Assembly: GCA_003151515.1 (NCBI GenBank)
Contig: PLXS01000017.1
Location: 1 to 64,000, forward strand
Length of the DNA: 64,000 nt
Direction: 5' to 3'
Source of the DNA: Opitutaceae bacterium
GTDB lineage: Bacteria; Verrucomicrobiota; Verrucomicrobiia; Opitutales; Opitutaceae
The position numbers and the translations under genes are program-made. The stretch's first letter is position 1. Every line of letters starts with the position of its first letter. Below the pieces are notes generated by a model that did not search any database, was not told the DNA's origin, and saw nothing but the letters and a program-made list of their open reading frames with translations. Positions 1 to 4,442 of the stretch are shown one piece after another.

Positions 1-80
1 GAACCGACGCTTGCCTCAGGCACGTCTCCTGCGGGGCAGGAGCCGCGCCATCGTTAGCGCGGTTCATTAGGACGTTCGGC
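1..80 (+). repeat. attC recombination site, 3' part (integron)
   Basis: The site ends in the core GTTCGGC (74-80), preceded by CATTAGGAC as in the second attC at 820-917. GAACCG at the window edge can pair with CGGTTC (60-65), and CTCCTGC/GCAGGAG forms an inner hairpin around GGG. This matches the folded single-strand structure of attC sites; the 5' core lies outside the window. The strongest support is that GTTCGGC is the exact complement of GCCGAAC at 820-826, as expected for the two ends of one cassette. Confidence 0.75.
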
Positions 81-161
81 GCGTATCTGCGGTCGGTAGA
101 TGTTCGTTTCTTGGTTAGGCTACCGTTGACTAGCGGTCTGTGTTGAGCAATCGTTGAGCTC

Positions 162-389
162 ATGAGAACGAGTCGTCAGTTCACTGCTATCATTCAACGC
201 GAGAATGACGGTTTCGTGGCGCTTTGTCCCGAGGTGGATGTGGCAAGCCAGGGGGATTCGGTGGAAGAGGCTCGCTCCAATCTACAGGAGGCGGTCGAAC
301 TGTTGCTCGAAACTGCTTCCCCGGCCGAGATTTCTGAACGGCTGCACGGTGAGACCTACGTCACGCGGCTGGAGGTCGGAGTTGGGTAG
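162..389 (+). CDS. hicB: HicB-family antitoxin
   Basis: This 75-residue protein has the compact HicB fold signature. A beta-strand start (FTAIIQREN) is followed by FVALCPEVDVASQGDS and a helix of the EEARSNLQEAVELLLE type. HicB antitoxins bind and neutralise HicA mRNA interferases. Unlike longer HicB proteins it has no added C-terminal DNA-binding domain, so autoregulation through a separate HTH is not evident. The gene precedes hicA, the reverse of the classic hicAB order, and its end overlaps the hicA start by 8 bases, which suggests translational coupling. The family call rests on sequence pattern only. Confidence 0.85.
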   Translation: MRTSRQFTAIIQRENDGFVALCPEVDVASQGDSVEEARSNLQEAVELLLETASPAEISERLHGETYVTRLEVGVG

Positions 390-606
390 GCTAAGGATCT
401 TCTCAGCGAGTGAACTATGCCGGCTCATGGAGGAGCACGGGTTTCGCAACGTGCGACAAAAGGGCAGCCACATAATTCTTCAGAAGCAGGTTCTCGGAGG
501 AACAGTGACTGTTCCAGTGCCGAATCATCGCGAAATACGTATTGGGACTCTTAAGTCGATTGTTCGTCAATCGAAGCTCCCGAGCGCTCTATTCGAATTA
601 CCCTGA
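382..606 (+). CDS. hicA: HicA-family toxin (mRNA interferase)
   Basis: The 74-residue product has the HicA dsRNA-binding-like fold: SASELCRLMEEHGFRNVRQKGSHIILQK, then PVPNHREIRIGTLKSIVRQ. The His in GSHII corresponds to the catalytic His of HicA RNases, which cleave mRNA during translation. The ORF track starts this frame much earlier; I prefer TTG at 382 because GGAGG lies 6 bases upstream and the product then has normal HicA length. It overlaps hicB by 8 bases. It sits in an integron cassette, where such modules are typical stabilising cargo. Confidence 0.82.
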   Translation: MGRLRIFSASELCRLMEEHGFRNVRQKGSHIILQKQVLGGTVTVPVPNHREIRIGTLKSIVRQSKLPSALFELP

Positions 607-652
607 GACCAAGAATAAGTGGAAGATCCTCGTCATTCAGCAAACTAGCAAG

Positions 653-829
653 ATGGGCTCGGTAAGACTAAAGATAGAGGGTGGGCAGGGCGGCCGGCGT
701 GGTCATTCAAACATGACTCATTGGGTCTCGACGGAAGAGATCAAGAGTGCGGCCAGAATCCGTCGCAGAAGAGAATCAAAGGCGATCATTGCCCGAGAGA
801 CGGTCGAAGCCATTGAGACGCCGAACTAA
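653..829 (+). CDS. small basic protein of unknown function in cassette 1
   Basis: This 58-residue reading frame follows hicA inside the same cassette and ends with a TAA that lies just after the attC core, as cassette genes often do. The C-terminal half is a basic amphipathic helix (STEEIKSAARIRRRRESKAI). I do not recognise a family. A shorter start at ATG 713 would give 38 residues. No strong ribosome binding site precedes either start, so it may be a remnant or non-coding. Confidence 0.35.
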   Translation: MGSVRLKIEGGQGGRRGHSNMTHWVSTEEIKSAARIRRRRESKAIIARETVEAIETPN

Positions 830-917
830 CTACCGGATCCGACGTCGCCGTCTGTCACGCCTCCTGCTGGAGCAGGCGGCGCGCCATCCGTCGCCGCGGA
901 TCATTAGGACGTTAGGC
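820..917 (+). repeat. complete attC site between cassettes 1 and 2
   Basis: The left core is GCCGAAC (820-826) and the right core is GTTAGGC (911-917). GGATCCG near the left end pairs with CGGATC near the right end, and GCCTCCTGCT/AGCAGGCGGC forms an inner hairpin. The length of 98 bp lies within the usual attC range. The two cores do not match each other because they come from different cassettes; each matches the far end of its own cassette. That mosaic is hard to explain without site-specific cassette insertion. Confidence 0.8.
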
Positions 918-1302
918 ATCATGAGCTCGCACGTTACCACCCGAAGGCTTTGGACGGAGGTCGTTATCGCAGCGATCTTGGGCTCAGGCGAACTTGTCTT
1001 GATGAATGTGTCGGATACGCATCCCGGAGTCGGTCTTCTCGAGTTCGTCTACCCCCTTGTAGCCGGTTTAGTAATCGGCGCGTTTGGCCGGGGTCCCGTG
1101 TGGATTGTCGGTCCAGCTGCGATGCTAGTTCTCCCCGTTGGGATGCTCGTCGGAGCTGTCACAGGTGGCACTGGGCTGAATCTATGGCCGATCGCTCTGG
1201 TTTATTACGGCATTTTTGCGGTAATCGCTCTCGGCGGAGCTGCCGTTGGTCGCTGGATGGCGCGCCGCTGGAGAAATCGGAGCGTTACAAACGATGCCTA
1301 AC
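912..1302 (+). mobile_element. integron gene cassette 2, attC interrupted
   Basis: The cassette begins with TTAGGC of the preceding attC and carries one gene. Its own attC starts at GCCTAAC (1296-1302), the exact complement of GTTAGGC. Beyond about 1320 the sequence becomes the 3' end of an IS110-type element, so the rest of this attC and its true right boundary are missing. Confidence 0.65.
921..1301 (+). CDS. small polytopic membrane protein (cassette gene)
   Basis: The 126-residue protein is mostly hydrophobic, with about four predicted membrane segments (EVVIAAILGSGELVLM, FVYPLVAGLVIGAFG, IVGPAAMLVLPVGMLVGAV, IALVYYGIFAVIALGGAAVG) and a basic tail (RWMARRWRNR). I chose ATG 921 rather than the longer frame from 747 because it begins 4 bases after the attC core, where cassette genes usually start. 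The stop codon TAA lies within the next attC core (GCCTAAC), also typical. The function is unknown. Small membrane proteins are common, poorly understood cassette cargo. Confidence 0.7.
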   Translation: MSSHVTTRRLWTEVVIAAILGSGELVLMNVSDTHPGVGLLEFVYPLVAGLVIGAFGRGPVWIVGPAAMLVLPVGMLVGAVTGGTGLNLWPIALVYYGIFAVIALGGAAVGRWMARRWRNRSVTNDA

Positions 1303-1325
1303 CAACACCTGAGCACAACCGCGCA
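1296..1325 (+). repeat. attC left half, truncated
   Basis: GCCTAAC at 1296-1302 is the left core of an attC site. No matching right half with the CATTAGGAC-GTT pattern follows. Instead the stop codon of a minus-strand IS110-family transposase lies 30 bases downstream. The exact junction cannot be placed without the intact site. Confidence 0.55.
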
Positions 1326-1332
1326 AGCAAAA

Positions 1333-2172
1333 TCAGGTGATGGCGAGACGAGTAGCCAGCGATGATTTTTGGCGCTGGAGAGAGGCGAGATAGCGGGCCT
1401 CGTTATAGGGAGCGCGGTCATGCCAGCATCGCCAGAGGATGCGGATCCACTTGAAGGCGAGAGCGCGTAAGGTGGCTTGGTGGTGTTTGCCGGCTGCTCG
1501 TTGCTGTAGGTAGTACGCCTTCGCCCAAGAGCACTTGGGTATGGACTGGCCGGCCCATTCGACGAAGGTCTGGCGCAGGAACTTGGGCGCATTCCATCGC
1601 CAGTGGATCCAGAGCGAGTGGCCGCTTTTCTGCGTAACGGGAGCAATGCCGGCATATTTCTGAAGGCTGCAGGCGTCAGGATAGCGAGAGCGGTCGGTGC
1701 CGAAGGCTGCGAGCAGGCGAGGGGCGGTCGCCGGTCCCGCACCCGGCAGGCCTTTGAAGAGATCTGCCTCGGGATGGGCCTCGAAGGCCTCGGCGATGTG
1801 CTCCTCGATGAGGGAGATGTTTTTCTGGAGGGGCCGCAGGATGTCGACGAGCATTTTCACCTCGAGCATCGCGGGCTCGATGACGGCCCGGTCTTCGGTC
1901 AGCGCGCGTGCCTGGGCAATGAGGGCGAGCCGCTCAGCGACTACGTCAGCGTGCCGTGAGTTATGGGCGGCATAGAAGGCCCGGAGGATTGCGGGCCGGG
2001 CTGCCTTCAGGCTCCTGAGTTCCGGCCAGCGGGCTAGGAAGTCGAGCATCAGGTCGGTGGCCGGTTCGCGTCCGCACAGCTCCAGCGCCTGCGGGTAGTA
2101 GGTCTTGAGCGTGCTGGCCAGTTCGCAGGCTAGTGCTTTGGTGCAAAGGCCGACCCGGTTGCCTCCACGTCA
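1333..2172 (-). pseudogene. IS110-family transposase, 5'-truncated
   Basis: Read from the minus strand, the frame is open from about 2172, upstream of the track's start at 2049. It holds the second half of an IS110-type transposase: TLKTYYPQALEL and LARWPEL, then the Transposase_20 region (LPGAGPATAPRLLAAFG, LQKYAGIAP, KSGHS, RWNAPKFLRQTFVEWA). Family members are about 330-400 residues with an N-terminal RuvC-like DEDD domain. Here most of that domain is absent, and the sequence at about 2175 switches to the end of an integrase gene. The element is probably inactive. Its 3' end sits 30 bases from a broken attC, in line with the IS1111-attC group that targets cassette sites. Confidence 0.75.
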
Positions 2173-2189
2173 AAGAATGCTCTCGATAA

Positions 2190-3317
2190 TCAGATTCTCA
2201 CTTTCTTAGCGGCCTCGACCGAATGCTCTTGGCGCAGGTGGCCATAGGTCCGCATCGCCAAAGCACCCCCATCGGCGTGCCCGAGCCAGCGCGAGATGGT
2301 CGGTATATCCACGCCTGACTCGATGCAAAGGGTCGCGAAGAAATGCCGCAGGTCGTGGTGGGTCATTCGATGGCAGCCGGCCTTTTCTGCCGCGCTCGTG
2401 AGCGCCTTTTGCGCCTCGTGAACGCGAAAGATCGAGTCTTCGGGTTTTGGTTTCCGTTCGGCGTGCAGCCTTTCGAGAAGCTGGCGCAGCGCCGGAATCA
2501 TCGGGATAGTCCGGTGGCTGGTCGCCGACTTCTCGCCGGGAATCGTGATTAGCCCCTTCTCGAAGTCCACATGACGCCAACGCAGGAGCGCGGCCTCGCC
2601 GATGCGCGCGCCGCTGTAAACCAACCCCTCGACCAAATCCCCGCAATCGCGACTCTGCCGTGAGCCGGCTGTGCGAACGGCCGCCACCAGTTGTGTGAAT
2701 TGAGCCCGCGATGGTAGTTCGAGTTTCTTCGCCCGGACACGGGCTTTCTCCAAATCAGCGGCTGGATTGCGGTAAATCGCTCCCTTCTCCACGCCGATCT
2801 CGAACAGGCGCCGGACGCAGTCAATGGCACCATTGACTGTCGTGTGACTCGCCGAGAGTCGGCGATGCTTTCCGCCATTCGGCACGAACTGGCTGCCGTT
2901 TGCCGTCAACTTGCGCAGCCACTCCCGGCAATCCGATTCCGAGACCCGCCGAATGTCGGCGAGCCGTAACTCGGGCCATGTTCGATCGAGCAATCGGATG
3001 AATCGCAAACGAAATTCTTTCGACCGCGCCTTGAGCCGGTGATCCGCTTTGACCGCGTCTTCGTAGACCGCGATGGCATCGCCGACGGTCATCTGGCCGG
3101 AATCAACGGCGGCGATGCGGTTGACGGCCCCTTTTACTTCATCTTCGAAATCGCGCAGGCGCAATTTGGCAACAGCCAGGACGGTCGTCTCAAGCGACCG
3201 CCATTTCTGCTTGCCAGCTACTTTCACCCGCCCGTAGTAGCTACCGCTCTGTCGGTTCTTTAACAGATTCGGAACACTGGTCGGAAGCCACCGAGTTTCT
3301 TTCACACTTGAGCTCAT
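2190..3317 (-). CDS. tyrosine recombinase / phage-type integrase
   Basis: The 375-residue protein has an N-terminal SAM-like core-binding region (about 70-190) and a C-terminal catalytic domain. The catalytic set is visible: Arg in YSGARIGEAALL, HDLRH (about 321-325), LGH, and Tyr near 358 (TYGHL). Such enzymes integrate or excise genetic elements at att sites, often tRNA genes. Its start is 87 bases from a tRNA-Phe. It lacks the features I would expect of an integron IntI and looks like a genomic-island or phage integrase. Its 3' end abuts the IS110 remnant. The tRNA reads away from it, so the usual integration at a tRNA 3' end does not directly explain the layout. Confidence 0.9.
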   Translation of the reverse strand: MSSSVKETRWLPTSVPNLLKNRQSGSYYGRVKVAGKQKWRSLETTVLAVAKLRLRDFEDEVKGAVNRIAAVDSGQMTVGDAIAVYEDAVKADHRLKARSKEFRLRFIRLLDRTWPELRLADIRRVSESDCREWLRKLTANGSQFVPNGGKHRRLSASHTTVNGAIDCVRRLFEIGVEKGAIYRNPAADLEKARVRAKKLELPSRAQFTQLVAAVRTAGSRQSRDCGDLVEGLVYSGARIGEAALLRWRHVDFEKGLITIPGEKSATSHRTIPMIPALRQLLERLHAERKPKPEDSIFRVHEAQKALTSAAEKAGCHRMTHHDLRHFFATLCIESGVDIPTISRWLGHADGGALAMRTYGHLRQEHSVEAAKKVRI

Positions 3318-3403
3318 TCGATAGCCAAGAGTGTAGATAATCGGTGTAGAAAATTCAAGCAGTGAAATGAGTCTGTTACGTAAGTAATTGAATATAAGTT
3401 GAT

Positions 3404-3479
<76 letters not shown>

Positions 3480-3662
3480 CTTTAACGTAAGATATTTAAA
3501 ATAAAAACCTTACAACACAATTGTCAGGCCAAGTTTCGCGCATCAACTTGAGTTCAACGAAAAAGAATATCGATGCCCTTTCAGAATTCATCTTCGCGAA
3601 AGAAGAAACGTTGCAATTCGAATTCGAGGATGGTCGATGGCGCGATGCTAGCAAGTTGCCTT
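3480..3662. other. AT-rich intergenic stretch, possible ORF fragment
   Basis: This stretch between the tRNA and the FkbM gene is clearly richer in A and T than the rest of the window. A plus-strand frame from TTG 3521 to a stop at 3700 encodes a protein-like peptide (ETLQFEFEDGRWRDASKLPF), but it has no ATG and overlaps the FkbM gene end. It could be a gene remnant. No terminator or att repeat was recognised. Confidence 0.3.
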
Positions 3663-4442
3663 TTAGATCGTCTTCATTGGCCGAGGTTGCCCCCGGTTGA
3701 AGGCGTAATCATCGATGAAAATCGTGTTGATGTAGGTATCCGCGTAAACTCGGTAGCTGTTCTGTTTCAGAAGTTCGATAATGTTTTCCAATTTCTGCCC
3801 AGTGTTGTTCTCACTGTAGGTCAACGTCTCCACGCAGATAATCTTAGGTCGATATTTTCCAAAATCGAGCGATTGCAAGACGGCGAAATCCAGCCCTTCG
3901 ATATCCAACGACATGATGTCGGGAGCCCGGACAAAATATCGTTCGAGGAGCGTGGTGATTGAAAGCAGGTCTATTTTAAGTATTCGGAGAATTCTCTTGG
4001 AGCCAAGCCTCTCGATTCTGAGCGCTTCCTCTTTTGAAAAGGTGTTCAGCTTGGGATCCGTCATTTCGTAAAAATCTGCTTTTACTTCGTTCTTAAAGCT
4101 GATGCCGATGTTGAGGCAAAGATCCCTATTCCGCCTACGGCGGATTGTTGCATAGAGGGTTGGGTCAGGTTCAACGAGCACTCCCGTGCATCCCCGTTTG
4201 TAAAAGAGGTAAGTATTATTCAATCTGACCGGATCATTGGTTCCGATGTCGAGATAGGTTGGGCAGGCGATATTCAACGACCTGCATACAAAATCCATAA
4301 TCACGTCTTCACCGCATTGTGAATAGCTCGTTGGCGGCCGGTTTGCGCGAGCTTGTCGGAAGCGATCGTAGGTTCCGCGAAACAGTTTCTGGCAGATCGG
4401 ATACAAAAACGTCCGTCTCAGGAGTTGTTTGAGGCAATCCAT
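3663..4442 (-). CDS. FkbM-family methyltransferase
   Basis: The 259-residue protein shows the FkbM SAM-dependent methyltransferase pattern: YLDIGTNDP (SAM-binding loop), GVLVEPDP, and IMSLDIEGLDFAVLQSLDF. Members often O-methylate sugars or polyketides, and many sit in polysaccharide or glycan clusters; the substrate here is unknown. The gene uses more A/T-ending codons than its GC-rich neighbours (AAA, AAT, ATA, TTT), which suggests horizontal acquisition. It lies beside a tRNA and an integrase. The C-terminal tail after YINTIFIDD looks normal, so the gene appears intact. Confidence 0.85.
   Translation of the reverse strand: MDCLKQLLRRTFLYPICQKLFRGTYDRFRQARANRPPTSYSQCGEDVIMDFVCRSLNIACPTYLDIGTNDPVRLNNTYLFYKRGCTGVLVEPDPTLYATIRRRRNRDLCLNIGISFKNEVKADFYEMTDPKLNTFSKEEALRIERLGSKRILRILKIDLLSITTLLERYFVRAPDIMSLDIEGLDFAVLQSLDFGKYRPKIICVETLTYSENNTGQKLENIIELLKQNSYRVYADTYINTIFIDDYAFNRGQPRPMKTI

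What the first reader, a model, noticed from the sequence alone, without database searches (positions are those of the whole stretch)
1296..2172. IS110/IS1111-type element inserted in an attC site
The transposase stop lies 30 bases after the attC core GCCTAAC, and the rest of the attC is missing. A subgroup of IS1111 elements (IS1111-attC) is known to target cassette recombination sites. Finding one beside a putative verrucomicrobial attC would extend that relationship to another phylum.
Basis: partly seen in the sequence, partly recalled or inferred. Interest (0 to 1): 0.7.

Follow-up and report, generated by a model that had tools for sequence, protein, structure and literature searches.

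The report
RNA-guided jumping gene inside integron site
The window holds the broken end of a jumping gene that belongs to a bacterial family (Verrucomicrobiota) which repeatedly lands at one exact position in integron cassette recombination sites, apparently steered by a short guide RNA that it carries; this is known for a different branch of these elements in other bacteria but seems not to have been described for this branch or this phylum.

Summary
Window 1296-1302 (GCCTAAC) is the first core box (R'') of an integron attC; the end of an insertion sequence starts at 1303. The copy is a fragment (1303-2134): its 5' third and the rest of the attC are absent from the window.

Intact relatives settle the question. 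In L004 (Opitutaceae MAG, same genus) a 1581-bp element splits an attC beside an integron integrase gene; joining its flanks gives a 98-nt attC, 90/98 identical without gaps to the window's intact attC. Eleven right ends abut the same core position; nine have the matching core at the far end of the cassette (0.7 expected by chance). The window's own genome holds a second copy's left end with the other attC half.

The family assignment is wrong: this is IS110-type, not IS1111-type (5' non-coding region, guide order, tree). A predicted bridge RNA reads attC: its left guide varies with each host's attC sequence; its right guide reads the near-invariant GTT of the core. Across 15 relatives cognate guide-target matches average 7.8 versus 3.8 (0/20,000 permutations). 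Relatives with other guides sit elsewhere.

New variant of a known kind; RNA, transposition and effect on cassettes are inferred.

The parts
1..80 (+). attC cut by the contig start; its R' core GTTCGGC is at 74-80
   Evidence: 80% identical to the intact attC at 815-922; contig G000:C18 starts at window base 1
74..826 (+). gene cassette 1, carrying hicB-like and hicA genes; start core GTTCGGC matches its R'' core GCCGAAC (820-826)
   Evidence: sequence; HicA_toxin PF07927 E 2e-17, HicB-like weak
820..917 (+). intact attC of cassette 1, 98 nt, R'' GCCGAAC, R' GTTAGGC (911-917)
   Evidence: bottom strand folds at -28.5 kcal/mol, z -3.84; 90/98 identical to the restored attC of L004
911..1302 (+). 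gene cassette 2 (ORF 921-1301, no Pfam match); start core GTTAGGC matches its R'' core
1296..1302 (+). R'' core GCCTAAC of the interrupted attC of cassette 2
   Evidence: same core position abutted by the IS in the other copies found
1303..2134 (-). 3' part of an IS110-type insertion sequence; core dinucleotide TG (CA on +) at 1303-1304; right end reads ..GGTTGTGCTCAGGTGTTG|GTTAGGC
   Evidence: 81% DNA identity to L003 and 77% to L004 over 1296-2134
1333..2134 (-). truncated transposase gene (C-terminal part; most of the N-terminal DEDD domain missing)
   Evidence: PF02371; matches residues 150-415 of the 417-aa L004 transposase, which has both PF01548 and PF02371
2190..3317 (-). tyrosine recombinase gene beside the truncated IS; not an integron integrase
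   Evidence: Phage_integrase PF00589 E 1e-19; TIGR02249 only 51.9 bits against a cut-off of 265
3404..3479 (+). tRNA-Phe(gaa) next to the tyrosine recombinase
   Evidence: ARAGORN

Best explanation
The feature is the right-hand end of a 5'-truncated IS110-type (ISEsa2-like) insertion sequence that had inserted at a fixed position and in a fixed orientation in an integron attC, between the R'' core box and the L'' side. Intact members are about 1.58 kb and encode a DEDD transposase of about 417 aa. Their long 5' non-coding region is predicted to give a bridge (seeker) RNA. The RNA's left target guide pairs with the attC spacer and L'' side (for example UCCGGUAG or UCUGGCG); the right target guide (..AACCA) pairs with TGGTT, which spans the core dinucleotide and the near-invariant GTT of R''; the left and right donor guides pair with the element's own joined ends (CTCAGGTG, TGTATTG). 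The element therefore lands beside R'' of many different cassettes in one integron lineage. Insertion splits the attC, which should stop IntI from excising or moving that cassette. Shown: precise attC insertion, empty-site match, conserved position, guide-target correspondence. Inferred: the RNA is made and used, the element transposes, the cassette is immobilised.
For: Joining the L004 flanks restores a 98-nt attC, 90/98 identical without gaps to the window's intact attC; L004 lies beside a 341-aa integron integrase ORF (TIGR02249, 255 bits). Eleven right ends abut GTT..., and nine have the exact matching core at the far end of the cassette, against 0.74 expected. Own-genome contig C41 ends inside a left end of the same IS preceded by an attC half. 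Left guide against left target: cognate mean 7.8 versus 3.8 non-cognate over 15 elements, 0 of 20,000 permutations; L004 guide AUCCGGUAG = target ATCCGGTAG, L027 UCUGGCG = TCTGGCG. The right donor guide covaries with the left end, including the core: CAATACA, TGATACA, CGATACA, CGATACG. The guide loop sits in a stable hairpin (z -3.2 to -3.8) with compensatory changes. Tree: with ISEsa2, far from IS4321/IS5075.
Against: No RNA or transposition data. Most genomes are MAGs. The window copy is a fragment with no guide region of its own; its guide is read from L004 and from the other copy in the same genome. The left guide of one attC-resident copy (L082) does not match its target, and one RE remnant (L118) and L082 lack a matching cassette partner within 1.2 kb. 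The right guide is only a 5-6 nt match, and in L004 a rival 6-nt match (CCTAAC) lies elsewhere in the loop. The donor-loop fold is not better than shuffled sequence in two of three members. L004 and the own-genome copy have an 8-bp subterminal inverted repeat, an IS1111-like trait.
Confidence: 0.88

Rival explanations
1. It is a member of the IS1111-attC group (relatives of ISPst6, ISKpn4, ISPa21) that spread into Verrucomicrobiota.
For: Same kind of target (one end of attC); L004 and the own-genome copy have an 8-bp subterminal inverted repeat GCACAACC/GGTTGTGC, and bridge-RNA work gives 7-17 bp for IS1111.
Against: Long non-coding region is upstream (297 bp in L004), 3' one about 30 bp; guides in IS110 order, bottom-strand match first (rule); transposase tree puts it with ISEsa2 and far from IS4321/IS5075; inverted repeat shrinks to 5 bp in L005 and 3-4 bp in L027 and clade B.
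Confidence: 0.05
2. The IS recognises the folded attC hairpin (structure-directed targeting) rather than a linear sequence through RNA guides.
For: attC and REP targets of other family members are potentially folded structures (PMC11187229); R'' cores vary while the position stays fixed.
Against: Guide-target matches of 7-10 nt covary between elements, including relatives with targets that are not attC but use the same RNA layout; L006, grouping with clade A, carries a different left guide and sits at a site matching that guide.
Confidence: 0.05
3. The IS end next to GCCTAAC is a chance product: the IS was carried there by a deletion or island rearrangement that also truncated it.
For: The copy is truncated next to a tyrosine recombinase and a tRNA, and the other attC half is missing from the window.
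Against: The right end is intact and abuts the core at the same base as in L003, L004, L005, L007, L027 and others, with matching cassette partners; the truncation is at the other end.
Confidence: 0.02

Closest known systems
ISEsa2 and other IS110-group elements with a 5' bridge/seeker RNA (IS621, ISEc21)
   Same: DEDD plus Transposase_20 protein, long upstream non-coding region, left-guide-then-right-guide order, conserved CTCAG near the right end and TAT at the left end; ISEsa2 (41% protein identity) has the same guide layout
   Different: ISEsa2 and its plasmid relatives have guides for other sites; the window clade's guides match attC
IS1111-attC group (ISPst6, ISKpn4, ISPa21, ISPa25)
   Same: Insert at one fixed position at one end of integron attC sites, guided by an element-encoded RNA (PMC11187229); reported to disrupt attC (PMC11616780)
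   Different: IS1111 family: downstream non-coding region, reversed guide order, long subterminal inverted repeats; described from Proteobacteria. Exact insertion point could not be compared, because the original papers are not held
IS4321/IS5075 (IS1111 group)
   Same: DEDD transposase of the same superfamily; one fixed target
   Different: Target Tn21-type terminal repeats; transposase separated by a very long branch
Group IIC introns associated with integrons
   Same: Another mobile element class known to be associated with integrons (PMC7923331 abstract)
   Different: Ribozyme and retroelement, unrelated machinery; none seen here

Membership tests
IS110 family/superfamily (DEDD recombinases) | DEDD (PF01548) plus Transposase_20 (PF02371) domains in the full-length relative | tested here: met
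   L004 and L005 hit both above cut-off; window fragment hits PF02371. NF033542 132.6 bits, slightly under its 140 cut-off
IS110 group (as opposed to IS1111) | Longer non-coding region upstream of the transposase gene | tested here: met
   L004 297 bp upstream, about 30 bp downstream; rule
IS110 group (as opposed to IS1111) | Bottom-strand guide lies 5' of the top-strand guide | tested here: met
   Left guide 5' of right guide in the attC clades (rule)
IS110 group (as opposed to IS1111) | Transposase phylogeny | tested here: met
   Groups with ISEsa2 relatives (100/100), apart from IS4321/IS5075; few IS1111 references were available
IS1111 family | Subterminal inverted repeats of 7-17 bp | tested here: inconclusive
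   8 bp in L004 and the own-genome copy, 5 bp in L005, 3 bp in L027 and L081, 4 bp in L082
IS1111 family | Longer non-coding region downstream of the transposase gene | tested here: not met
IS1111-attC group | Insertion at a fixed position in integron attC | tested here: met
IS1111-attC group | Transposase related to ISPst6/ISKpn4/ISPa21 | not tested
   Those sequences could not be fetched from the collections at hand
Integron attC site | R''/R' cores matching within each cassette, folded bottom strand, cassettes between | tested here: met
Integron array | Integron integrase next to the array | tested here: inconclusive
   None above cut-off in the window's own genome (92% complete MAG); present beside L004 in the same genus (256 bits, just under the 265 cut-off) and in several other host genomes
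Bridge/seeker RNA | RNA transcribed and bound by the transposase | not testable with these tools
   Only sequence, folding and covariation evidence; no Rfam match

The most novel reading that the evidence does not exclude
IS110-type elements, a branch separate from the IS1111-attC group, evolved attC targeting on their own in Verrucomicrobiota (perhaps twice), by a bridge RNA whose right guide reads the universal GTT of the integron core while the left guide tracks the lineage-specific attC sequence of the host integron: natural guide reprogramming that follows the host's cassettes.
Probability: 0.7. Interest if true: 0.65.

Novelty: new variant of a known kind. Interest (0 to 1): 0.55.

Why it matters
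Two separate branches of RNA-guided insertion sequences have settled on the same integron site, which suggests that attC is an especially good landing place: repeated, spread among cassettes, and outside genes. It gives a natural series of guide-target pairs on a structured, variable target, useful for testing how bridge RNAs tolerate mismatches and how they are reprogrammed in nature. It also offers a way to test whether such insertions freeze cassettes, and so shape integron arrays in environmental bacteria outside Proteobacteria.

Tried and rejected
IS1111 membership: rejected on layout, guide order and tree. Chance core match: rejected by cassette-partner matches and the empty site. Missing attC half in the window: looked for, not there; found instead in relatives and, for another copy, at the end of contig C41. 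A first strict attC finder returned almost nothing because these cores deviate from RYYYAAC; relaxed. Rfam has no model for this RNA. tblastn with IS4321 gave only IS4321/IS5075 copies, so no IS1111-attC reference was obtained. A single origin of both attC clades without L006 is rejected (p-AU 7.6e-7), but with L006 it is not (0.30), so one versus two origins stays open. No direct repeat of the tRNA-Phe region was found in the contig, so the island border stays undefined.

Full report
What is in the window. The first 1.3 kb of the contig is an integron cassette array. Cassette 1 (74-826) carries hicA and a hicB-like gene; cassette 2 (911-1302) carries a small ORF without a Pfam match. Each cassette opens with a core that is the reverse complement of the R'' core at its end (GTTCGGC/GCCGAAC; GTTAGGC/GCCTAAC), which is what a cassette formed by integrase recombination at R' must show. 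The attC at 820-917 is complete and folds as bottom-strand DNA (z -3.84). The second attC consists of its R'' box only, 1296-1302; at 1303 the end of an insertion sequence begins, in reverse orientation. The transposase stop is at 1333-1335. DNA homology to intact relatives stops at about 2134, so the element lacks its 5' part. A tyrosine recombinase (2190-3317) and tRNA-Phe (3404-3479) follow; the recombinase is not an integron integrase.

Intact relatives. One scan of bacterial genomes and several genome searches gave close relatives only in Verrucomicrobiota. L004 (PLTZ01000090.1, an Opitutaceae MAG; the same contig appears as G661, same genus as the window genome) has the whole element: left attC half 725-815, IS 816-2396, R'' GTTAGGC 2397-2403. 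Joining the flanks restores a 98-nt attC that aligns without gaps to the window's intact attC with 90 identities. The integron integrase ORF (341 aa, 3075-4100; TIGR02249 255 bits, just below the 265 cut-off) lies beside it. L005 (70% protein identity) and L027 (67%) also have both ends in attC; L003 and L007 show the right end. A second clade at about 43% identity (L081/L030, L042, L033, L082) sits at the same core box. Of eleven right ends, nine have the exactly matching core at the far end of the neighbouring cassette; 0.74 would be expected by chance.

The window's own genome. Contig C41 ends inside the left end of the same element, preceded by an attC half (..AGCGTCGGATCCGACGATTG|TATTGCACAACC). 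This is another copy, since the window copy has lost its 5' part.

Guide RNA. Published rules (PMC11187229, PMC11208160) say that IS110 and IS1111 elements carry an RNA with guides for both strands of the target and the donor. In this family the left target guide follows a conserved ACGAA in the 5' non-coding region. Over 15 elements the match between this stretch and the element's own left flank averages 7.8, against 3.8 for mismatched pairs, and none of 20,000 permutations reached the observed sum. L004 has AUCCGGUAG for target ATCCGGTAG; L005 and L027 have UCUGGCG for TCTAGCG and TCTGGCG. Plasmid relatives including ISEsa2 show 8-10 nt matches to quite different sites, and L006, which groups with clade A in the tree, has a different guide (UGGAUCC) and sits at a site that fits it. 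The right target guide contains AACCA(G), complementary to (C)TGGTT, that is the core dinucleotide plus the near-invariant GTT of R''; this is a short match and less certain. The right donor guide is the exact complement of the core plus left end in the seven members read and changes with it, core included. The target loop lies in a long hairpin with compensatory changes; the donor loop folds less convincingly.

Family. The upstream non-coding region, guide order and tree place it in the IS110 group near ISEsa2, not in IS1111. One trait is mixed: an 8-bp subterminal inverted repeat in L004 and the own-genome copy that fades in relatives. It works like the IS1111-attC elements but is not shown to be one of them; the layout tests speak against it. 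Whether the two attC-targeting clades arose once or twice is undecided.

Function. Insertion separates R'' from the rest of the attC. From established knowledge of IntI, which needs the folded site, this should immobilise the cassette; others have suggested the same for ISPa21 (PMC11616780). That step was not tested. Literature searches in the held library found attC targeting described for IS1111-group elements only and none in Verrucomicrobiota; most subscription papers, including the two original ones, are not held.

Noticed in passing
window 162-606: Cassette 1 carries a HicBA-type toxin-antitoxin pair (HicA E 2e-17), a common kind of cargo in chromosomal integrons.
   Followed up: no
window 2135-3479: A tyrosine recombinase gene and tRNA-Phe adjoin the truncated IS; the recombinase lies on the 5' side of the tRNA and no repeat of the tRNA region was found in the contig, so what truncated the IS and where the island border lies is open.
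   Followed up: partly
L091 (G000:C41 172,000-178,092): The own genome has a further run of attC-like sites near the end of contig C41 and one in C34, without an integron integrase above the model cut-off in this 92% complete MAG.
   Followed up: partly
L061 8459-9512: In G081 the attC next to the IS is followed by another, unrelated IS110-family transposase (very long branch in the tree), so a second IS lineage may also use this array.
   Followed up: no
L100 (ISEsa2) and L099, L103, L104: Plasmid-borne ISEsa2-like elements show clear 8-10 nt left-guide matches to their own flanks, so their bridge RNA and target can be predicted from sequence.
   Followed up: partly
L082 (G384:C1): This attC-resident copy has a left guide that does not match its present left flank, unlike nearly all others.
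   Followed up: no
L118 (G919:C72): A short right-end remnant (about 24 bp) of the same IS abuts GTTCGGC in another genome of the same genus; no matching cassette partner within 1.2 kb.
   Followed up: partly
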